Made by a program: the position numbers and the translations under genes
Shown here: one piece after another, positions 13,371-64,000 of the stretch
How positions within the stretch are numbered: the first letter of the stretch is position 1
How the letters are laid out: every line of letters begins with the position of its first letter
The notes under the pieces: model-generated
Told to the model about the DNA's origin: nothing
Database searches by the model: none
What the model saw: the letters and a program-made list of their open reading frames with translations, nothing else
NCBI GenBank assembly: GCA_907163375.1
Contig: CAJQUW010004425.1
Location: 96,653 to 160,652, forward strand
Source of the DNA: Prostheceraeus crozeri
Taxonomy: Eukaryota > Platyhelminthes > Polycladida > Euryleptidae
Length of the DNA stretch: 64,000 nucleotides
Direction of reading: 5' to 3'

Positions 13371-14373
13371 ACTGACCTGACCGAGTTCTTAAAATTATAT
13401 GGAACGCAAACAACTACGAATTTTGATCTAAAGAAAATTGCTAATCAATTGGGAATAAAAAATTTTCACATATTGATGAGGGATGAATTACGCTTGCTAA
13501 AAGATAAGCCAACTGTAAATTTCGTAACCAGTGGCGGCTCGTCAGAGGAGGCGAGGGAGGCACTGCCTCCCCATGATTTTCTGTGGCAAGATATTTTATA
13601 TTCCTGACATTTTTCTACGCTATTTTGTTTGATTCATTAAAATAGTAACATTGATCACACGGCAACATGCCTCAGCCGAGCAACGCAGATATCAAACTCG
13701 CTGTATCGCAACACAGGGAGGCGTGCCTCACCTCACAGTGTTATACGCGGTAGAGAACTTTGATGACACGTGATTGGCTGATTCATTCAGCTGCTTGTTT
13801 TCAATGTGAAAGGGAGGCATGCATCAGCCATTATTCGCGTTCGACGTTCGGTACTGCTGCTTCGATATGGCGTCCGCTGCGAATGAAATATGCACAGCAG
13901 AGGAGGTTTTCTATGTGGACAGCATTCTCGAAAAGCCGTTTTCACGTTTATCTATTCAGGAAAAGTTGGACATCAAGAGGAGAGGAAGAGAAACACCAAA
14001 CTTATCTTCGGAATCGGGAAAAAAGTCATAGTTAAAATCTAATTTCTAATTTTTCATTTTTTGCCTTCTCATAGAAAATACCCACGAGCCGCCACTGTTC
14101 ATAACAAATCTTCACACGCCAGATCAAAAAGGAGTACATTGGTCAGCAGGTATGTCTAATAAAAATGGAGATAATTACTATTTAGACTCATATGGACTTC
14201 CACCTACAAATGAAGTAAGAGAAATACTTGGCAATGGAGCATACAATACGTTTCAAATTCAAACACCAGGAACTACATATTGTGGTCAATTATGTATATA
14301 TGTTTTGTATAAATTACAAAAAGGAGTACCATTTCTAGATATTATGTTAGAATTGAATAAGGGAATTGAATAA
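13368..14373 (+). pseudogene. Adenain-type cysteine protease, split by hAT insertion
   Basis: This would be the capsid-maturation protease of the element. The 5' part (13368-13528) and 3' part (14106-14373) flank the hAT element. With the 8-bp duplication counted once, the two parts are in one frame and total 142 codons, the usual size for Polinton proteases. Catalytic signatures are visible: histidine in GVHW, aspartate in YLDSYG followed by PP, and cysteine in YCGQLC. The gene precedes the convergent integrase fragment. The start is chosen at ATG 13368, which has the AAAATG context used throughout the element. It cannot make protease unless the insertion is removed. Confidence 0.85.
13529..14097. 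mobile_element. hAT-type element inserted in the protease gene
   Basis: Termini CAGTGGCGGCTCGT / ACGAGCCGCCACTG are perfect inverted repeats. The flanking duplications are TTCGTAAC (13521-13528) and TTCATAAC (14098-14105), 7 of 8 identical. The interior is GC-richer than the surrounding Polinton. It retains a short plus-strand frame (about 13867-14031) with '...EKPFSRLSIQEKLDIKRRGR', resembling the start of some hAT/ZMYM-type transposases, so it looks like a deletion derivative of an autonomous element. Confidence 0.9.
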
Positions 14374-14452
14374 GGGAATTTAATTCTCGAAACGTTAGTT
14401 CCAATTACTGTAATTAAAGTTCAAACGAAGCTAGCTAAAGCCCACCTAAAGG
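14374..14452. other. Junction of convergent protease and integrase remnants
   Basis: A short spacer between the protease stop and the last open codons of the minus-strand integrase remnant. Nothing else is seen. Confidence 0.4.
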
Positions 14453-15000
14453 TTAAAGCTCGGTTATTTGTAATTCGTTTTCATTAAATCGGCCTCTGAT
14501 TTCCTGATCATCTAAATCTCTAATTTCATCTCTAAGGATCGTCAGAAGCATTCGTTGGAGTTTCTTCAATACCTGAATGAACTTTATTATTGTACTGATC
14601 TACAATTCCTGGTAATATCTTCAACCATTTCTGATTACCTTGCTCAGTAAATTTCTTGAATATTTTATTTTTTAAAGTTCTATTAAATCTCTCTATTACT
14701 ACATCTTTGCTAGCATGTTCTGTGGATTAAACAGTTTCAAATAATGGCTTAACATTTCTGTTATAAAACTCAGATCCTTTATCAACGAAGAGCTTCTTTG
14801 GCTTTCTATTACTTTCTTTAAAGATTTCTTCAAACGCATATTTAACTGACAGACCACTTTTTTTTAAAGGCTTTGCCCAAGCGTACCGTGTATATAAATC
14901 TATAACGGTCAATGCGTATTTATGATCTTTTTCATTCGGTATATTGATTAGATCAGCACTCCAAATATCATCTGTATTAAATACTTTTACTTTCAATACA
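14453..15000 (-). pseudogene. Polinton retroviral-type integrase, truncated and broken
   Basis: This is the integrase that would insert the element. The catalytic core is recognisable: first aspartate in DIWSADL, second aspartate in LFVDKGSEF, and glutamate in VVIERFNRTLKN. YALTVIDLYTRYAW lies between the first two. An in-frame TAA (14727-14729) lies 12 codons before the catalytic glutamate, and a further stop at 14532-14534 is followed by continuation in another frame. The N-terminal zinc-binding part and any chromodomain are absent: upstream, the frame runs straight into the end of the phospholipase gene. Inactive. Confidence 0.85.
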
Positions 15001-56309: not shown

Positions 56310-56344
56310 TACCTATGCAAATGTGGTAAAGACTAACACGGAAA

Positions 56345-56710
56345 ATGGCGAAACGTAAAATGACGAAACGTAAAAGTCAAAAGTCTTCAAAGTTTTCTTC
56401 AGCCATTCAAGCTCTCCGACGAATGAAAGCAAATCAGCGATACAATGCTATACAACATGCTAACGATAAATTCATTCGTGAAATTATTTCTCATGTGAGA
56501 AAGTTGAGGACGAAGAAATTAGCACCAAAACAACGAAAGTTACTTAAGCGATATGCTACGAAATTGCGTTTCATATCCAACCCTAAAGTCACCCTTCAAA
56601 GAAAGAGGAAAACTCTAACACAAAAGGGCGGTTTCCTTCCAGCGTTACTACCGATGCTAGCTCCTATCGTGGGCAACGTATTGGGTAATATCTTTGGCTC
56701 TAGACGTTAA
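56345..56710 (+). CDS. Basic pX/pVI-like virion protein
   Basis: The 121-residue protein is strongly basic (KRKMTKRKSQKSSK at the start, KVTLQRKRKTLTQK later). It ends with KGGFLPALLPMLAPIVGNVLG, the membrane-active or core-protein signature of Polinton virions likened to adenovirus pX/pVI. It probably condenses DNA and/or disrupts membranes. It ends 31 bases before the ATPase ATG. Confidence 0.75.
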   Translation: MAKRKMTKRKSQKSSKFSSAIQALRRMKANQRYNAIQHANDKFIREIISHVRKLRTKKLAPKQRKLLKRYATKLRFISNPKVTLQRKRKTLTQKGGFLPALLPMLAPIVGNVLGNIFGSRR

Positions 56711-56741
56711 TTATGCAAATGTTGAATCTCAAAGTATTATA

Positions 56742-57359
56742 ATGGATTTCAGACTTCAATGTGATAAAGTTCTGACTGTATCAGGTCCATCTCATGCAGG
56801 TAAAACTGTTTTCACGCTGAATTTATTGGATAAAAGAAGGGAGTTGTTTAAGGAACCTATCAATCGAGTGATTTGGTGTTATGGTATTTATCAACCGTCG
56901 CTGTTTCAGGAATTGCAAAGTCGCAACTTTATTCGACATGAAGGAATTATTCCAGTGGATAAACTTCAGTCTAATGATGTTGTTGTATTGGATGATTTAT
57001 TAAAAGAAAGTAAGAATTCCAAAGATGTTACAGATATGTTCACTCGTACAGCACATCATAAAAGGTGCTTTATCATCTATATCACACAAAATTTGTTTCC
57101 TGATGGAAAAGAAGCTCGTACACGAAACCTGAATACACACTATTATGCTATTTTCAAGAATCCGCGAGATAAAAGTCAATTTGAAATTTTAGCGCGACAA
57201 GTTGCACCCAGAGAATCAAAAGCCTTAATTGAAATTTTTCAAGCAGCTACTGAAAAACCACACGGTTACTTATTCATTGACTTTACGCAAGAGTGTCCGG
57301 AAGAATTTAGATTTCGAAGTGATATTTTGAAAACTCCCATGATTATCTACAAACTATGA
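56742..57359 (+). CDS. Packaging ATPase (A32/FtsK-like)
   Basis: The 205-residue ATPase would pump the genome into capsids. Walker A is GPSHAGKT (residues about 14-21), Walker B is VVVLDDLL (about 84-91), and a sensor-like ITQN lies at about 124-127. Length and motif order match the small A32-type ATPases of Polintons and adintoviruses. The start at ATG 56742 (MDFRLQCDKVLTVSG) places the P-loop after one strand, as expected. The stop overlaps the next ATG (ATGA at 57356). Confidence 0.92.
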   Translation: MDFRLQCDKVLTVSGPSHAGKTVFTLNLLDKRRELFKEPINRVIWCYGIYQPSLFQELQSRNFIRHEGIIPVDKLQSNDVVVLDDLLKESKNSKDVTDMFTRTAHHKRCFIIYITQNLFPDGKEARTRNLNTHYYAIFKNPRDKSQFEILARQVAPRESKALIEIFQAATEKPHGYLFIDFTQECPEEFRFRSDILKTPMIIYKL

Positions 57360-58048
57360 GTTCTTATTCTCGCATGATTGTTATTCCTCAGGATGAATAT
57401 GTACAATTGACTGCCATGCAGCAAGTGAAGCAACCTCTTGCAAATCAAATGTATAGGAAAGAAATAGATTATCAGCAAAATGTTCACATCAAAGGTCCAC
57501 ATCGTGCTGTATTATTACAATCGGAAACTGTTGAGCAACTAAAAAATTTGAAGAATAAGATGCGTGACTCTGTATCGACTGCTACACCTTTAGCATCTCG
57601 CGCACATGCCATATCTCTTTTCAACAGTATTGAACTCCATCTCAAAGTAAATGATAGAGGAGAAATCATTACAGATGAAAATAAAGTGATTGATGCTTCA
57701 CGTTATGAAGACTTGATTCAGTATGCGACACGTAGAAAGCGCCGTCAGGGCTATGTTCCACCTGGTTGGTCATACTTTCTTAAACTATTGAAAAAGCATA
57801 ATGTGCCAAAATTTGCTTTGAATAATGAGACATTGAAAGAACTTGATTCAACAGTGGCTACTGCTCCAATGCTTCAGACGATGAAAATGCCAACAAATTG
57901 GTTTAAGACGTCACCTGCTACATCCCCTCCCACACTCACTAAGCAAACAAGAGGAAGAACTCGACGTAGATCTACGCCCCCACTAAAACTAGTAAAAGGA
58001 AAACGTAAAACAGCTCCTCCCAAGAAATACATGTTCTCAGACTATTAA
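57356..58048 (+). CDS. Conserved Polinton protein following the ATPase
   Basis: The 230-residue protein begins with SYSRMIVIPQDEYVQL, a strand and helix resembling the start of a family repeatedly found beside Polinton ATPases. A central GWSYFLKLLKKHNVPKFALN region follows (about 140-160). It ends in a Thr/Pro/Arg/Lys-rich basic tail (TRGRTRRRSTPPLKLVKGKR) likely to bind DNA or carry a nuclear signal. It overlaps the ATPase by four bases, so the two are probably co-expressed. Function unknown; possibly a minor virion protein. Confidence 0.6.
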   Translation: MSSYSRMIVIPQDEYVQLTAMQQVKQPLANQMYRKEIDYQQNVHIKGPHRAVLLQSETVEQLKNLKNKMRDSVSTATPLASRAHAISLFNSIELHLKVNDRGEIITDENKVIDASRYEDLIQYATRRKRRQGYVPPGWSYFLKLLKKHNVPKFALNNETLKELDSTVATAPMLQTMKMPTNWFKTSPATSPPTLTKQTRGRTRRRSTPPLKLVKGKRKTAPPKKYMFSDY

Positions 58049-58049
58049 T

Positions 58050-58265
58050 ATGAAGCAGATGTGTTGCTTGCCATGTAATGAGCCGCCAGAGGTGAATGTC
58101 GTTGTCACTTGCACTTGCTGCGCCAGCTCTCACAATGAAACCCCTAAGCAATGTGAACACGATCGCAAAACCGCTAAAGCTAAATGCTGCAGTTGTTGTA
58201 AATGTAGAAAGGCAAGAAAACAAAAAGATGAGAAGGAGGAAAAAGAGTCAGTCGTCATCGACTGA
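58050..58265 (+). CDS. Small cysteine-rich protein
   Basis: The 71-residue frame has 12 cysteines (CCLPC, CTCCASS, CCSCCKC) and a Lys/Glu-rich C-terminus. It starts one base after the preceding stop and overlaps the integrase start by 38 bases. The pattern could bind metal, but no family is recognised. It is possible, though less likely, that it is an upstream open frame of the integrase. Confidence 0.5.
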   Translation: MKQMCCLPCNEPPEVNVVVTCTCCASSHNETPKQCEHDRKTAKAKCCSCCKCRKARKQKDEKEEKESVVID

Positions 58266-59316
58266 ACGTTTGAAGTCAATCTATTATGATTTAAAACATC
58301 CGGCAGGATTTGCATCTATCAAGAAATTATCAAATGCGAGTGGTCTTCCACAATCACAAGTGAAACGATGGTTAAAGGGTCAGGCTACCTATACACTCCA
58401 CAAACAAGCGAAAAAGAAGTACCGCACCCGCCATTATATTGTTCATGACATCGATGAACAGTGGCAAGCAGATTTGTGCGATGTCGCCTCCATTTCAAAA
58501 CATAACTCGGGCAATAATTTTATTTTAACCGTCATTGATATTTTCTCGCGTTATGCGTGGGCTCAACCTTTAAAAACTAAAGAAGGGAAAGGAGTAGCAA
58601 AAGCATTCCAAACAATTTTTCGAGAAGGTCGCATTCCAAAAAGAATTCAGAGTGATCAAGGAAAAGAGTTCGAAAATCAGCATGTGAGAAGATTATTTGA
58701 GAGGCATGACATTTAGTTGTTTAGTGTAAAGAGTGCTTATAAAGCTGCACTCGTTGAACGTTTCAATCGCACATTAAAAAATCGCTTGTGGCGACATTTT
58801 ACTGCCAACTTGACACAAAATTGGACAAAGGTTCTACAAGATACACTCCATGCCTACAATCACTCTATCCATCGTTCTATTGGACTCAGACCAGTAGATG
58901 TAAATGCTGACAATGCAGATAAAGTGCGCGAATCATTCCAACGTAAACGCACTCATGTGAAAAGTGATGTGAAAATTGGTGATAAAGTTCGTATCTCAAA
59001 AGTGAAGAGTGTTTTTGCTAAAGGGTACCTTCCGAATTGGACAGAGGAGGTATTTACAGTATCAAGGATTGATCAAAAAGACTCTCCCACCACCTACAAG
59101 TTAAACAATTACGATAATGAAGAAATTGAGGGTAGCTTTTACCGCGATGAGATTGAGGTAATCACTGAAAGTGAAACATATTTGGTAAAGAAAATCATTC
59201 GATGTAAAAAACGACAAGGTGAAGAATGGTGTCTTGTTAAATGGACTGGTTATCCTTCAAGTATGAACTCTTGGATGCGTCGTGCCGACATCTTTCATCT
59301 AAGTGATCGACAGTGA
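58228..59316 (+). pseudogene. Chromodomain integrase with one in-frame TAG
   Basis: This is a retroviral-type integrase. Its helical N-terminal region (LSNASGLPQSQVKRWL) looks like a helix-turn-helix. The catalytic residues are D in WQADLCDVAS, D in IQSDQGKEF, and E in AALVERFNRTLKN. The C-terminal chromodomain (TYLVKKIIRCKKRQG then WCLVKWTGYPSSMNSWM) is at about residues 310-350. Chromodomains can guide integration to marked chromatin. A TAG at 58714-58716, 14 codons before the catalytic glutamate, is the only break. It means either one inactivating mutation (CAG to TAG is the simplest) or readthrough. I choose ATG 58228 because codons upstream lack similarity to integrases. Confidence 0.88.
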
Positions 59317-59357
59317 TTCATGCAAAGTTGTAACTAACAATGTTTAGGGTTTGAGCT

Positions 59358-59813
59358 ATGAATCCAACTGCCTCATTTTATTCACGACCCTCGTATGTAA
59401 GTGGTGGAGGACAAATTTACATCGGCGCTCGCCGCCAACGTGGAGGTAGCATACTTGGTGCACTGAAATCTGTTGTAGCACCTCTCATATCCAATGTCGG
59501 AAGATCTTTAGAGCGAAATGTTTTAAGTAAAGCCGTTGGCTTTGCTGGTGATGTTGCTAGTGATCTTTCCAGAGGTAGAAGTTTTAAGAGCAGTTTGTTG
59601 AATCGTGGGAAGGAACGCGGTTTAAAAACATTGAAGCAGACCTTTGCTGGTGTTACTCAAGGAAAGAAATCGCCTAAACGAATGAATAAAGGAAGAAGGA
59701 AACATCGCGGAGCTGGTAAGGTGCGATCTTCAGTCAAAAGGCATTCACGCAAACGTCGCAGAGGTTCTAATCATTCATCAGGCGCTAAACGACGACGCTG
59801 CCATAACTTCTAA
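59358..59813 (+). CDS. Basic minor virion protein (GARRQRGG type)
   Basis: The 151-residue protein begins with an aromatic/Gly stretch and YIGARRQRGGSILGALKSVV (about 22-41). This is the 'G-R-QRG-GIG--F-GL-R---P' signature found in a family of Polinton structural proteins. Next comes an AGDVASDLSRG helix, and a C-terminus extremely rich in Arg, Lys, Ser and His. It probably combines a membrane or capsid-binding N-terminus with a DNA-binding tail, like adenovirus core or minor capsid proteins. It sits directly before the capsid gene (2 bases apart). Confidence 0.7.
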   Translation: MNPTASFYSRPSYVSGGGQIYIGARRQRGGSILGALKSVVAPLISNVGRSLERNVLSKAVGFAGDVASDLSRGRSFKSSLLNRGKERGLKTLKQTFAGVTQGKKSPKRMNKGRRKHRGAGKVRSSVKRHSRKRRRGSNHSSGAKRRRCHNF

Positions 59814-59815
59814 TC

Positions 59816-61093
59816 ATGGAGTGTAAAACTTCCGGGTTTTGTTTGTTTGATCAACAAGCCATACAGACAGATATTCTTAGTTCAAGTATTGTAGATTATC
59901 ATCCTCGAACAGCTGAGAATGCTGGCCCCATTGAATTTGTTATTCCTGGTGGTAGTGATGACTACATAGATTTGAGTTATGCGATGGTTGATTTGAGGTT
60001 TAGAATTCAGCAAGCAGATGGAACTGCTATTGACGATACACATAAAGTTGGACTGAACAATTTACCATTGACTACATTACTTCGCGATGTTTCTCTAACG
60101 ATTGATGAGCAGCAGGTGGAAGGTGGCGAAAGCGATTATCCCTATAAAGCATATTTCAATCATGTATCACAGTTTCATCCAGCAGCACAAAAAAGTCATA
60201 TGGAAGCCATGGGATGGTACAGAGATGAAGCAGGAAAATTTGATGCTGAAACAAACAGTGGCTTTGCAAAGCGATCTGCTATGATTAAAGATAGTAAAGT
60301 ATGTCAGCTATATGGTCCGCTGAATTTAGACTTCTTTAGACAGTCAAAGTTTTTACTCTGTAATACCAGCATGCGACTCAAGCTGACATTGAATAAGCCT
60401 GAATTTGCGCTGAATGCATTTGCTAAAGTTGACAATTTTAGAATTCATGTGGAAGATATTGCACTTTACATTCGTCGAGTAGTACCGAATCCAAGTGTCA
60501 TTAGAGGACATGCTGAAGGTCTTAACCGCCAAAATGCCATTTACCCCGTTCAGCATACAAAGCTTCTCACCTTTACAATTCCGAAAGATCATAAGAGTTT
60601 CATGAAAGATGGCCTCTTTCCATCGGAAGCACCGAAGCTCCTCATGGTGGCAATGGTTGAAAATGATGCATTTAATGGTAATATAAAGAAGAATCCTTTC
60701 AATTTTAAACGCAATCAGTTAAGTGAAATTGCTTTACGTGTAAATGGTGTGAGTCATCCTGGTCCACCCTACAAACCAGATTTTGCTGCGGATCAATTTA
60801 TGCGCAGTTATGTTGATTTTATGGATGTCTTTGGCTTTTACAATACGGATGACACCAACGGACTCACTATGAAAGAGTTTAAGAGTGGATATACTATTTA
60901 TGCATTTGATTTGACTGCTGACAGCGATATTAGTGCACCCTATCGTCAAGCGAACGTGCCTCATAATATTCGTTTGGATTTGACGTTCAAAAGAACACTA
61001 CCTGAGACGATCAATGTATTACTTTATGCAGTCTTCGATTCAAATATTGAAATTACAAAGTATCGTGACGTGATTCTTCAGTATAATCGTTAA
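59816..61093 (+). CDS. Major capsid protein (F54H12.2-type)
   Basis: The 425-residue protein has IEFVIPGGSDDYIDLSYAMV near residue 45 and DYPYKAYFNHV near 108. It ends with a C-terminal TFKRTLPETINVLLYAVFDS segment. These are hallmarks of the F54H12.2-like family, first annotated in Caenorhabditis and widespread in animal Polintons. The family is interpreted as a double-jelly-roll major capsid protein. The frame is intact. It is followed by the protease with a one-base stop/start overlap (TAATG), a typical late-gene pairing. Confidence 0.78.
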   Translation: MECKTSGFCLFDQQAIQTDILSSSIVDYHPRTAENAGPIEFVIPGGSDDYIDLSYAMVDLRFRIQQADGTAIDDTHKVGLNNLPLTTLLRDVSLTIDEQQVEGGESDYPYKAYFNHVSQFHPAAQKSHMEAMGWYRDEAGKFDAETNSGFAKRSAMIKDSKVCQLYGPLNLDFFRQSKFLLCNTSMRLKLTLNKPEFALNAFAKVDNFRIHVEDIALYIRRVVPNPSVIRGHAEGLNRQNAIYPVQHTKLLTFTIPKDHKSFMKDGLFPSEAPKLLMVAMVENDAFNGNIKKNPFNFKRNQLSEIALRVNGVSHPGPPYKPDFAADQFMRSYVDFMDVFGFYNTDDTNGLTMKEFKSGYTIYAFDLTADSDISAPYRQANVPHNIRLDLTFKRTLPETINVLLYAVFDSNIEITKYRDVILQYNR

Positions 61094-61554
61094 TGAGTTG
61101 GTTGACTGCTGACGATATTAAAACTAAAGTACAGCGTAATGCAGACGAAGCGACGTTGAAAGCTTTCGATAATGTCTATTCGCTCGATACCTTACCACCT
61201 GCAGTAAATCACTATCCCATCTTTATTGTACTAAACACTCATTCGCAGAATTTAGGCGGTGAGCACTGGAAAGCGATCTTTATTGGAGAAGACCGACGTG
61301 GTGAACTATTTGACTCTCTTGCTCAACCTCCAAATATACCAACACAGCAGTGGTTGAGAAAACATACGCGTCAATATCAGCGAAATGAACGCATACTACA
61401 ACATCCACTTTCATCAACGTGTGGTGCTTTTGTACTGTACTTCATCTTAAAACGTTTACATGTATCTCGATTTGTATCTGTTACTCAAAACTTTTCATGT
61501 AATCCATCCTCTAATGAAAAAATGATTTGTAAGTTCTATCATGATTTGAAATAA
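61093..61554 (+). CDS. Adenain-type maturation protease
   Basis: The 153-residue cysteine protease resembles adenovirus protease and Ulp1-type enzymes. The catalytic histidine is in GGEHWKAIFI (about 57-59), the acidic residue in GELFDSLAQP, and the cysteine in SSTCGAFVLYF (about 114-118), preceded by a Gln-rich stretch. It would process virion proteins during maturation. The frame is complete, and all catalytic positions are present, unlike the split protease of Polinton 1. An AATAAA at 61551-61556 overlaps the end of the gene. Confidence 0.9.
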   Translation: MSWLTADDIKTKVQRNADEATLKAFDNVYSLDTLPPAVNHYPIFIVLNTHSQNLGGEHWKAIFIGEDRRGELFDSLAQPPNIPTQQWLRKHTRQYQRNERILQHPLSSTCGAFVLYFILKRLHVSRFVSVTQNFSCNPSSNEKMICKFYHDLK

Positions 61555-61585
61555 AAACATCATGTTGGAAAAATTGTTTTTTATT
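61551..61585. terminator. Back-to-back poly(A) signals between convergent genes
   Basis: AATAAA on the plus strand is at 61551-61556, overlapping the protease stop. On the minus strand AATAAA is at 61585-61580, overlapping the stop of the TBP-like gene. Only 26 bases separate the two coding ends, so the transcripts' 3' ends must overlap. Confidence 0.65.
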
Positions 61586-62126
61586 TTACAATCCGCTGGG
61601 TACGTACATACTCGATGAGATAGTCTAGGATCACATTTGCTTGTACATGAGATTTTAGTCCAGTAATGATCACTTTACTATTATGAAAGATTGCCACATG
61701 CACAGGTAACCAACAACTAATAAGAGCTGCAGGAAAAAGTTCGGGTTCATAACACAAATTGTAACTGCTGGTACGAATCTTCAAAAATGATACACTTTCA
61801 CTCAATTGAGTAGAGATCACCATATTGTCCACAGTCAGATTCGACATCACACACCTCTCCCTCTTCCATATCCGACGTAGTAGTCTCTGTAGCTCTAAGA
61901 GCATTGACTGCGCCGATGAATGAGAAAGGGCGCCGAGAATCTGTACAGTTCCATTTCGGAAGAGTTGAAGATTCCGTGAATTGTTCATCTTCACCACTAA
62001 CATTTGAGGTCGGCCCGGGTAATACTTGCTGTTTGGAAGGTGTTGGTGTAATTTTGTGAGATCGATTTTGGTGTAGAGTCTGAAGCGACGGAAAATGTTG
62101 ACGATGGTGTAGCGATGGCGCTTCAT
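61581..62126 (-). CDS. TATA-binding-protein-like protein
   Basis: From the ATG at 62126 the product is 181 residues, the length of a TBP core, and it shows two halves. The first has IDLTKLHQHLPNSKYYPGRP, then FRNGTVQILGAL. The second has LTVDNMVISTQL, then YEPELFPAALI and IFHNSKVIITGLKS. The YEPELFPGLI, IF-SGKV-TGAK and N-Y-P-RF words of eukaryotic TBP are thus all represented, in order and spacing. TBP binds the TATA box and starts transcription. A viral version could direct polymerase to the element's own promoters, one of which has a clear TATA box (53863). Several phenylalanines that kink DNA in TBP are replaced, so DNA binding is unproven. The open frame extends upstream to 62270, without similarity. 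Confidence 0.82.
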   Translation of the reverse strand: MKRHRYTIVNIFRRFRLYTKIDLTKLHQHLPNSKYYPGRPQMLVVKMNNSRNLQLFRNGTVQILGALSHSSAQSMLLELQRLLRRIWKRERCVMSNLTVDNMVISTQLSESVSFLKIRTSSYNLCYEPELFPAALISCWLPVHVAIFHNSKVIITGLKSHVQANVILDYLIEYVRTQRIVK

Positions 62127-62448
62127 GATGAAAGAATGAGTAAATTGAGCGATGTACCTTCCTTTTATACTTCTCCCAACTACCTTGATGAAATGTGAAG
62201 TTAGTATGGAGTTGGGAATGATAGAGTTGAATTTGCCGTTTGTTGACGCGCAACCATATGCGATTTCCAATACGTGAATGTCTATTCATATAGAAGTATT
62301 TCAAATCCTTCATGATATGATGTAGAGATTGAAAATGACGATGAGATAAAGCAAACTCTCTTCTCACATTTCCAGTTGAATCTTTGAAATAGACGTTTCG
62401 ATCATGATCCGTTTCAATACGTTGTAGGGAATCTAATTTCCAACTCAT
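61798..62448 (-). CDS. PC4-like candidate protein, paralogue 1, with tail overlapping the TBP-like gene
   Basis: From the ATG at 62448, the first ~110 residues are clearly paralogous to 62471-62827. Shared words are LDSLQ, REFALSHRHFQSLHHIMKDL against RGITLTWRQFVNLNDIMRDL, IGNRIWLR against LGDQVWLQ, and GSWEKYKRKVHRSI against YNWEKYRRYIHRYI. Each protein seems to contain two beta-hairpin-plus-helix units. The 'GI-LT---W--L' ending of a unit recalls the PC4 single-stranded DNA-binding coactivator fold; this is a tentative assignment. The frame continues for about 107 more codons on top of the TBP-like gene in another frame, ending in an acidic tail (DMEEGEVCDVESDCG). Whether the extension is translated usefully is unknown. 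Confidence 0.6.
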   Translation of the reverse strand: MSWKLDSLQRIETDHDRNVYFKDSTGNVRREFALSHRHFQSLHHIMKDLKYFYMNRHSRIGNRIWLRVNKRQIQLYHSQLHTNFTFHQGSWEKYKRKVHRSIYSFFHHEAPSLHHRQHFPSLQTLHQNRSHKITPTPSKQQVLPGPTSNVSGEDEQFTESSTLPKWNCTDSRRPFSFIGAVNALRATETTTSDMEEGEVCDVESDCGQYGDLYSIE

Positions 62449-62470: not shown

Positions 62471-62827
62471 TTAAGATTTGCATAGTAGGGTGATGAACTC
62501 ACGACGAATAAATGTCATGATGTAGCGATGTATGTATCTTCTATACTTCTCCCAATTGTATTTGCGAAATGAGAAACAGTTTGCGGAATGAGAATGGCAG
62601 ATTTGAATTTCATTGTTGCGACGTTGAAGCCAAACTTGATCACCCAAGGAGATGAATCTTAATGTTTCAAAATATTCCAAATCCCTCATGATATCATTGA
62701 GGTTGACAAATTGTCGCCATGTTAATGTAATACCTCTTGATGAATGACCATGAGAATTTTTGAAATGTACGTTTCCATTACGATCAACTCTGATATATTG
62801 TAGAGAGTCCAAAATCCAAGTCTTCAT
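62471..62827 (-). CDS. PC4-like candidate protein, paralogue 2
   Basis: The 118-residue protein, from the ATG at 62827, is the tandem paralogue of the adjacent gene. It has two similar units, the first ending RGITLTWRQFVNLNDIMRDL and the second running from SLGDQVWLQRRNNEI to a YNWEKYRRYIHRYI helix. There are only 22 bases between its stop and the next gene's start. Its start is 35 bp from the divergent start at 62863, so the two transcripts share a minimal intergenic promoter (CAATATAAAA). PC4 similarity is inferred from the repeated strand-strand-helix pattern only. Confidence 0.6.
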   Translation of the reverse strand: MKTWILDSLQYIRVDRNGNVHFKNSHGHSSRGITLTWRQFVNLNDIMRDLEYFETLRFISLGDQVWLQRRNNEIQICHSHSANCFSFRKYNWEKYRRYIHRYIMTFIRREFITLLCKS

Positions 62828-62862
62828 GATGTTATGCAAAGTCGCAGATCAGCAATATAAAA

Positions 62863-64000
62863 ATGTCGTTTTATCATATTTTGCTTAGCAATGCGGCCGC
62901 AAATAGATTTGCTAGTAATCGAGCCGCACTCTTTTCTACTCCCATTGATCATACACAACAGCTAAATGGAAAGTGGGAAGTGGGTGTCACTCAACTTGTT
63001 TATAGCAACTCTGTCTATACTTTTGATCATGAGGTGATGACTATTAATATGAGGCGTACAGCTGCTTACCAATGTGAAAAGGGCTGCCGAGTATACATTC
63101 CACAGTGGCCAAAGAAAGATCTCTTATCATGTAAAAAGTTTATATATGATTTCCTGAATAAAGCGTGTAAACATATTGTCCAATTTACTCCGCACAATGA
63201 TGATCATAATTATGTACATCATGTAGTTGAGAAAGATTGGATTGTTGGTTTAAGACCAAGTTTAAGAAATGATTTAGGTTACCTCGCTAGCGCCTTAACA
63301 AGCTATGATAATTTTAACGTTAATTACCACATAAGTGGTCATAAACAGTTAATATATCGAGAGGAAGCTTATTATGTAGATCTTATTCCAAGACATGAGA
63401 AGACGTTGGTGAAGAAGATTGTGATTAAGCCAAGAAAGACAAACATGACTCCTGAAACATTATTGAAGAAATTTAAGTATCTCCTTCGAGTTGATGGTAA
63501 ACAAGTGGCAACATTGACTTATATGAAATCATCTAATCATATTGTAATAAGTAAATTAAATGATGATGATCTAGTATTAGTTTGTTCGAAAGATTTTCAT
63601 CAGTTCTTACGACATCGTTCTGCAGCTGTTCATGGAAAATTTGATATGCAACATTTACCATGTGAAAGGTCAAATCAATTTGATACAGAATGGACCGTAT
63701 CTTTATACAGAAAGTGTGTAGAGTCTTTAGGTGGTATCTTACATGAAACAAGAGTGTTGATGCCTCGCATTATTACTTCAGTTAAATTGGTTGTAGATTA
63801 TTTAAATGAAGTGATTAATGAGCAACATATTTCATTTTCTGAAAAAGAAGGTGCTTTGTCTCTCACTATAAGTGGAAAAGGTATTGAACTAATTATGGAT
63901 AAAACTCTAATGGACATTTTGGGTTTTGATCAAAATATCTTTAAAAGTGGTACTGTAACCAAAGCTAGCGCAGACATGTCACTATCGCGTCGTATTAACT
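62863..64000 (+). CDS. Polinton minor-capsid/penton-type protein, cut by window edge
   Basis: The frame is open for 379 codons from the ATG at 62863 to the end of the window. The N-terminus, MSFYHILLSNAAANRFASNR followed by FSTPIDHTQQLNGKWEVGVT, matches the 'L-SN-S---F--N----F-T-L---I-L-G-WEVGL' start of a large protein common in animal Polinton clusters. That family is generally viewed as a minor capsid or penton/vertex-associated component. The later part has two similar modules around 63380-63600 and 63770-63960 (FKYLLRVDGKQVA and VLMPRIITSVKLVVDYLNE). The gene is divergent from the PC4-like pair. The C-terminus is not visible. Confidence 0.7.
   Translation, partial: MSFYHILLSNAAANRFASNRAALFSTPIDHTQQLNGKWEVGVTQLVYSNSVYTFDHEVMTINMRRTAAYQCEKGCRVYIPQWPKKDLLSCKKFIYDFLNKACKHIVQFTPHNDDHNYVHHVVEKDWIVGLRPSLRNDLGYLASALTSYDNFNVNYHISGHKQLIYREEAYYVDLIPRHEKTLVKKIVIKPRKTNMTPETLLKKFKYLLRVDGKQVATLTYMKSSNHIVISKLNDDDLVLVCSKDFHQFLRHRSAAVHGKFDMQHLPCERSNQFDTEWTVSLYRKCVESLGGILHETRVLMPRIITSVKLVVDYLNEVINEQHISFSEKEGALSLTISGKGIELIMDKTLMDILGFDQNIFKSGTVTKASADMSLSRRIN

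What the first reader, a model, noticed from the sequence alone, without database searches (positions are those of the whole stretch)
61581..62126. A Polinton-encoded TATA-binding-protein homologue
The 181-residue product has the two-fold repeat of a TBP core, including YEPELFPAALI and a S-KVIITGLK word in the second half and matching words in the first half. I do not know of TBP in the usual Polinton gene set, though TBP-like genes are known from some large DNA viruses. It sits between the protease and capsid-associated genes of an otherwise nearly intact element, so it seems to be part of the virus rather than a host gene passed through. Its frame has no stop although Polinton 1 is full of them.
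Basis: partly seen in the sequence, partly recalled or inferred. Interest (0 to 1): 0.92.

Follow-up and report, generated by a model that had tools for sequence, protein, structure and literature searches.

The report
TATA-binding protein gene in Polintons
A family of virus-like mobile elements in an animal genome carries its own version of the protein that marks where genes start, kept intact by selection, so these elements may steer their own gene expression rather than rely wholly on the host.

Summary
Confirmed. Window 61581-62126 (minus strand) encodes a 181-residue TBP with both repeats (Pfam PF00352, E 2.4e-21; a profile of 30 relatives matches solved TBPs at up to 1.8e-24). It belongs to the Polinton. 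I read 50 distinct loci of this 2.05-Gb animal genome, in three Polinton families (A 23, B 3, C 24). One C copy has AGTAGT/ACTACT ends, long inverted repeats and a 6-bp target duplication. The frame is under purifying selection (pN/pS 0.34-0.45). 53 unnamed database relatives exist; the 24 Polinton-type TBPs in my tree form one clade on a long branch.

Beyond the finding: (1) three of four DNA-kinking Phe and the TFIIB-contact stirrup are kept, while in the first repeat one Phe is Pro and the central Thr is Leu, Met or Phe; (2) the first half of the TBP gene also encodes the tail of a neighbouring protein; (3) family-specific boxes lie 29-44 nt before several start codons.

Best reading: a viral core-promoter factor that works with host TFIIB and RNA polymerase II. 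Its DNA target is untested. I found no earlier report of TBP in Polintons in the papers searched.

The parts
61581..62126 (-). TBP gene, 181 codons plus stop
   Evidence: Pfam TBP 2.4e-21; PDB TBPs; ORF
61798..62448 (-). PCb, 216 codons, overlaps the first 108 codons of the TBP gene in another frame; function unknown
   Evidence: Five of 6 database relatives cover its whole length; overlap frame open by permutation test
62471..62839 (-). PCa, paralogue of PCb's N-terminal part (41% over 112 residues); first ATG at 62827
62163..62169 (-). TATAAAA, 43 nt before the TBP ATG (also encodes part of PCb)
   Evidence: same in families B (-46) and C (-43)
61093..61554 (+). protease ORF (Ulp1/adenovirus-type, weak match)
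   Evidence: Pfam C48 E 0.001, below cut-off
59816..61093 (+).
   Evidence: conserved in families A and B
59358..59813 (+). X151, basic protein of unknown role
58096..59316 (+). integrase with chromodomain, interrupted by one in-frame stop at 58714-58716
   Evidence: Pfam rve 1.6e-10, Chromo 2.2e-6
57356..58048 (+). Y230, unknown
56742..57359 (+). packaging-ATPase-type ORF (weak matches; ORF opens at 56694)
   Evidence: Pfam AAA_14 0.005, PHROG ATPase 0.0049
56345..56710 (+). [not shown]
   Evidence: Pfam Adeno_PX 7.4e-4, below cut-off
62863..64000 (+). W379, structural-type gene cut off by the contig end
54230..55983 (+). A171, B176 and C136, unknown genes also present in family C
56315..56321 (+). 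[not shown]
56713..56719 (+). ATGCAAA box, 29 nt before the ATPase ATG
59320..59326 (+). ATGCAAA box, 38 nt before X151
62834..62840 (+). ATGCAAA box, 29 nt before W379
62477..62483 (-). ATGCAAA box, 35 nt before PCb

Best explanation
The gene is a genuine, selected gene of a Polinton (Maverick) lineage and encodes a divergent TBP that acts as a virus-specific core-promoter factor. Shown: TBP homology in both repeats; presence in three Polinton families here and in a wider set of database relatives; purifying selection; a C-terminal half with its intercalating Phe pair and E-x-E-L-F-P stirrup; a consistently remodelled first repeat. Inferred: the protein bends DNA at the element's own core promoters in the nucleus and recruits host TFIIB and RNA polymerase II through the kept stirrup, so that element genes are expressed without, or in competition with, host TFIID. 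Inferred and weaker: its altered first repeat lets it read the family-specific boxes before several element genes, where a TATA box would lie if leaders are very short. The TBP gene itself has a plain TATAAA, so host TBP could switch it on first.
For: Homology. Context. Selection: pN/pS 0.449 in A (21 copies), 0.403 in C (23 copies), 0.344 between A and L115; frame open in 21 of 22 A and 20 of 23 C copies. Residues, 56 Polinton-type TBPs: Phe56 56/56, Phe131 55/56, Phe147 56/56, Glu127 55/56, Glu129 56/56, Thr155 56/56; Pro at the first Phe in 53 of 54 with a letter there; Leu/Met/Phe at the first central Thr in 56/56. Boxes: ATGCAAA before 6 of 16 family A starts, AAGCAA before 6 of 13 family B starts; TATAAA at -43, -46 and -43 before TBP in A, B and C. 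Precedent: the authors of PMC12085832 propose that the TBP and TFIIB of an algal large virus redirect host RNA polymerase (passage).
Against: No structure, binding or expression data. Element TFIIB or RNA polymerase genes were not seen among the annotated genes. Family C keeps TBP with PolB although no capsid-type, integrase, ATPase, protease or W gene was found there, so it cannot serve structural-gene promoters only. The box region was chosen after looking at the sequences, and gene starts are predictions. TATAAA before TBP also encodes a conserved Tyr-Lys of PCb, so its conservation may be coding.
Confidence: 0.55

Rival explanations
1. Decoy: the element's TBP binds host TFIIB, TFIIA or promoter DNA unproductively and damps host transcription or defence.
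For: The first repeat is remodelled (Phe to Pro, Thr to Leu/Met/Phe) while the TFIIB stirrup is kept; such a protein could sequester TFIIB.
Against: Most DNA-contact residues are kept, which a pure decoy would not need; family-specific promoter boxes exist.
Confidence: 0.2
2. Replication or DNA-architecture factor: the TBP saddle bends DNA at the element's ends or origin and serves protein-primed replication rather than transcription.
For: Family C keeps TBP next to PolB although no capsid or integrase gene was found.
Against: The stirrup that contacts TFIIB is among the best-conserved parts, which only transcription explains readily.
Confidence: 0.12
3. The boxes are sites for a host POU/octamer factor and have nothing to do with the TBP, which reads TATA only.
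For: Three family A boxes read ATGCAAAT; that this is the octamer motif is recalled, from no call.
Against: Family B has AAGCAA at comparable distances, which is not the octamer, and the spacing to the start is that of a core promoter. This rival is compatible with the TBP still being a promoter factor.
Confidence: 0.4
4. Captured host gene carried as a passenger without function.
For: Leu/Ile in the stirrup, as in eukaryotic TBPs, points to a eukaryotic source.
Against: Purifying selection, three families, one clade, remodelled but constant residues.
Confidence: 0.03

Closest known systems
Cellular TBP (Pfam PF00352), eukaryotic and archaeal
   Same: Two repeats, length about 180 residues, kept Asn pair, three of four kinking Phe, E-x-E-[LI]-F-P stirrup with eukaryote-type Leu/Ile
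   Different: About 27% identity to the host TBP; first-repeat Phe is Pro and first central Thr is Leu/Met/Phe; no N-terminal extension; intronless; overlapped by another gene
TBPs of large DNA viruses: mirusviruses (PMC10132985, passages), megavirus chilensis (PMC11464507, passage), algal large viruses (PMC12085832 and PMC4602308, passages)
   Same: A TBP encoded by a DNA virus; the algal virus authors propose the same mechanism
   Different: Those genomes are far larger and the last three also encode TFIIB by their papers; the 9 IMG/VR TBPs in my tree fall outside the Polinton-type clade and have the archaeal-type Gln in the stirrup (9 of 9)
Vertebrate Mavericks (PMC8097293, passages)
   Same: PolB, integrase, ATPase, protease; terminal inverted repeats, AGT-repeat ends and 6-bp duplications as in the C copy
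   Different: The words TATA, TBP and transcription do not occur in that paper's main text; no TBP among the genes named in the passages
TRF2/TBPL1-type TBP relatives (host copy in L002, naming by recall)
   Same: Also lose some kinking Phe
   Different: Other positions are changed: Phe56, 131 and 147 equivalents are Trp, His and Tyr in the host copy; grouping with Polinton TBPs is neither found nor rejected

Membership tests
TBP (PF00352) | Profile match over the curated cut-off in both repeats | tested here: met
   75.8 bits against 22.9, two stretches; 30 of 30 relatives match
TBP (PF00352) | Two-fold saddle fold | not testable with these tools
   Structure job interrupted, then tool switched off
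TBP (PF00352) | Four DNA-kinking Phe (positions recalled) | tested here: not met
   Three of four kept; the first is Pro in 53 of 54 with a letter there. Membership by homology stands; ordinary TATA binding is not thereby shown
TBP (PF00352) | TFIIB-contact stirrup E-x-E-L (positions recalled) | tested here: met
   Glu127 55/56, Glu129 56/56, Leu/Ile130 54/56
TBP (PF00352) | Binds TATA DNA and nucleates transcription | not testable with these tools
   needs protein
NCBIfam archaeal TATA-box-binding protein models | Curated cut-off of any of the ten models | tested here: not met
   30 to 73 bits against 181 to 347
Polinton/Maverick (the element) | Protein-primed type PolB, integrase, ATPase, protease | tested here: inconclusive
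   Integrase clear; protease and ATPase weak; PolB recognised by eye in L015 and its relatives in A copies L012 and L016 and in B; no profile run on PolB
Polinton/Maverick (the element) | Terminal inverted repeats, AGT ends, 6-bp target duplication | tested here: met
   One family C copy; not seen for A or B, and the window copy is cut by the contig end
Polinton/Maverick (the element) | Double jelly-roll major capsid protein | not tested
   CAP425 has no profile match; its fold was not predicted

The most novel reading that the evidence does not exclude
A lineage of animal Polintons has its own core-promoter system: a TBP with an asymmetric saddle (second repeat as in the cell, first repeat remodelled) that reads a GC-centred box (ATGCAAA in family A, AAGCAA in family B) at the TATA position of its genes, so that factor and box have diverged together between families living in one genome. 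It is packed so tightly that the first half of the TBP gene doubles as the tail of a neighbouring gene.
Probability: 0.3. Interest if true: 0.9.

Novelty: new variant of a known kind. Interest (0 to 1): 0.74.

Why it matters
How integrated Polintons control transcription in the nucleus is little known (own knowledge). A selected, clade-wide Polinton TBP gives a concrete handle: it predicts which promoters the element uses and how they differ from the host's. It shows a general transcription factor carried by an element of about 16 kb (the C copy), not only by very large viruses. It also offers a natural test of TBP specificity, because diverged TBP and box pairs sit in one host genome.

Tried and rejected
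PC4 idea: PCa and PCb looked to me like PC4-type single-strand binders, but no PC4 match came from Pfam or the PDB; dropped. Viral collections: the Polinton TBP profile found no relative in IMG/VR (45 pattern matches, none confirmed); CAP425 as a single protein found none (close relatives only); no match in phage records. Origin of the TBP: Polinton+eukaryote (p 0.261), Polinton+6 marine viruses (p 0.158) and Polinton+TRF2 (p 0.306) were none of them rejected; the sister group is open. Selection on the amino acids of the overlapped PCb tail: openness is far from chance, but substitutions do not settle it: TBP synonymous differences are reduced in the overlap in family A (0.032 against 0.053) and not in C (0.069 against 0.064), and pN/pS of the PCb frame in the overlap is 0.69 in A and 1.00 in C. 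Inverted repeats in the window gave only short, weak pairs, no terminal repeat. Host identity: unresolved; the TBP exons resemble those of many animals about equally. Two papers on adintoviruses and on nematode Polintons are not held and so were not checked.

Full report
What was checked. The minus-strand frame 62126-61581 is an open 181-codon ORF. Pfam TBP matches it in two stretches, E 2.4e-21. On its own it finds 35 distinct TBP sequences among solved structures, best 2z8u at 1.2e-12; a profile of 30 relatives finds 35, best 1.8e-24. All 30 of those relatives match Pfam TBP. Ten NCBIfam TBP models match, best 2.2e-20, all below their cut-offs.

How many copies. A Pfam TBP search of the genome scored 150 of 10,983 candidates; all 150 listed are over the cut-off, and 4 lie on the two contigs of the host TBP and a TRF2-like gene. 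I chose and read 50 distinct loci (52 rows, two loci fetched twice): 23 of family A, 3 of B, 24 of C. CAP425, protease and W379 neighbours were found in 23 of 23 A rows and 5 of 5 B rows. In C the only neighbour in 24 of 24 is PCb, which overlaps TBP and is not independent; A171 was seen in 11 of 24 stretches, most of them 3 kb long.

Family C. One C copy (contig C6670) runs from about 507453 to 523774 between inverted repeats (98% over 547 bases plus 94.5% over 421), ends in AGTAGT/ACTACT and has ATCATA on both sides. It holds PolB, TBP, PCb and A171-, B176- and C136-type genes. No integrase, ATPase, protease, CAP425 or W gene was found in L015, L017, L153, L154 or L155 at E 1e-3, nor in L156 beside another C copy at E 1e-2. 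A very divergent capsid gene could have been missed. The TBP is thus kept also by what looks like a capsid-less relative, which speaks against a role at structural genes alone.

Selection. Pairwise pN/pS of the TBP frame is 0.449 in A (21 copies), 0.403 in C (23 copies) and 0.344 between A and the 79%-identical copy L115. L112 and L017 were left out because their matches were incomplete. The frame is open in 21 of 22 A and 20 of 23 C copies. The ratios include neutral decay after insertion.

Overlapping gene. PCb (61798-62448) shares the first 108 codons of the TBP gene in another frame. That frame stays open 108, 107 and 102 codons into TBP in one copy each of families A, C and B; shuffling synonymous TBP codons reproduced this in 1, 2 and 15 of 20,000 trials. 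Five of 6 database relatives of PCb cover its whole length at 49-96% identity. Among copies it is fully open in 21 of 22 A, at least 96 codons in 20 of 23 C, and 102 codons in 2 of 3 distinct B loci. Whether the amino acids of the tail are under selection is unresolved (see Tried and rejected). PCb has no recognised domain.

Relatedness. 53 database relatives have E below 1e-3, best 81% identity; none carries a name and I could not see their surroundings, so that they are Polinton genes is inferred. A tree of 59 sequences (24 Polinton-type, 17 of the 80 archaeal loci, 9 of the 12 IMG/VR loci, 8 eukaryotic, one TRF2-like) puts the Polinton-type ones on one side of a branch at 100/100, length 2.19 changes per column. 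L108 was dropped for a wrong frame; L100 and L103 were not entered. The program warns of long branches, and the sister group is unresolved. One residue speaks for a eukaryotic source: Leu/Ile in the stirrup in 54 of 56 Polinton-type TBPs, Leu in 8 of 8 eukaryotic ones, Gln in 26 of 26 archaeal and IMG/VR ones.

DNA-contact residues (residue roles and numbers recalled). Of four Phe that kink DNA, those at 56, 131 and 147 are kept in 56, 55 and 56 of 56; the first is Pro in 53 of 54 with a letter there. The Asn pair is kept in 44 of 44 and 56 of 56. The second central Thr is kept in 56 of 56; the first is Leu, Met or Phe in 56 of 56. The second repeat is that of a working TBP, the first consistently remodelled.

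Reading. That this is a selected Polinton TBP gene I hold at about 0.95; that it is a viral core-promoter factor with host TFIIB and RNA polymerase II at 0.55; that it reads the boxes at 0.3. The rivals are listed; the octamer rival concerns the boxes only, so the odds of rivals do not add up with the main reading.

Literature. Ten searches, several seen only as the top of longer lists, showed no paper on TBP in Polintons. Of papers opened I saw only passages found by term: PMC10675990 (TBP in mirus-like elements of an alga), PMC10132985 (TBP in 59% of mirusviruses), PMC11464507, PMC12085832 and PMC4602308 (TBP in large viruses), PMC8097293 (vertebrate Mavericks), PMC10328495, PMC11071296, PMC11071308 and PMC10675110 (no TATA or TBP), PMC12220804 (TATA only within an author's name); PMC10120064 had no hit. 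Most subscription papers are not held, so the claim of novelty is limited to this library.

Noticed in passing
L015, L153 (genome contig C6670, 507453-523774): A TIR-bounded, high-copy relative with PolB and TBP in which no capsid-type, integrase, ATPase or protease gene was found: perhaps a capsid-less derivative moved by other elements.
   Followed up: partly
window 61798-62126: Two overlapping frames stay open together in three families, with TBP about 43% identical between them: a candidate for overprinting on a general transcription factor.
   Followed up: partly
window 61541-61600: The protease and TBP genes converge, and each stop codon overlaps an AATAAA on its own strand (read by eye): back-to-back polyadenylation signals.
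   Followed up: no
L002, L011 (genome contig C3829, 151570-151938): A TRF2/TBPL1-like host gene fragment (naming by recall) lies there.
   Followed up: no
P0057 (database protein): A PCb relative 96% identical to the window's comes from a JGI contig of 10,296 bases, so a close copy of the element, or its host, was sampled there.
   Followed up: no
window 14083-14984: The other, degraded Polinton of the window has integrase and protease traces, but no TBP match at E 0.01 was found in the window outside 61584-62126.
   Followed up: no
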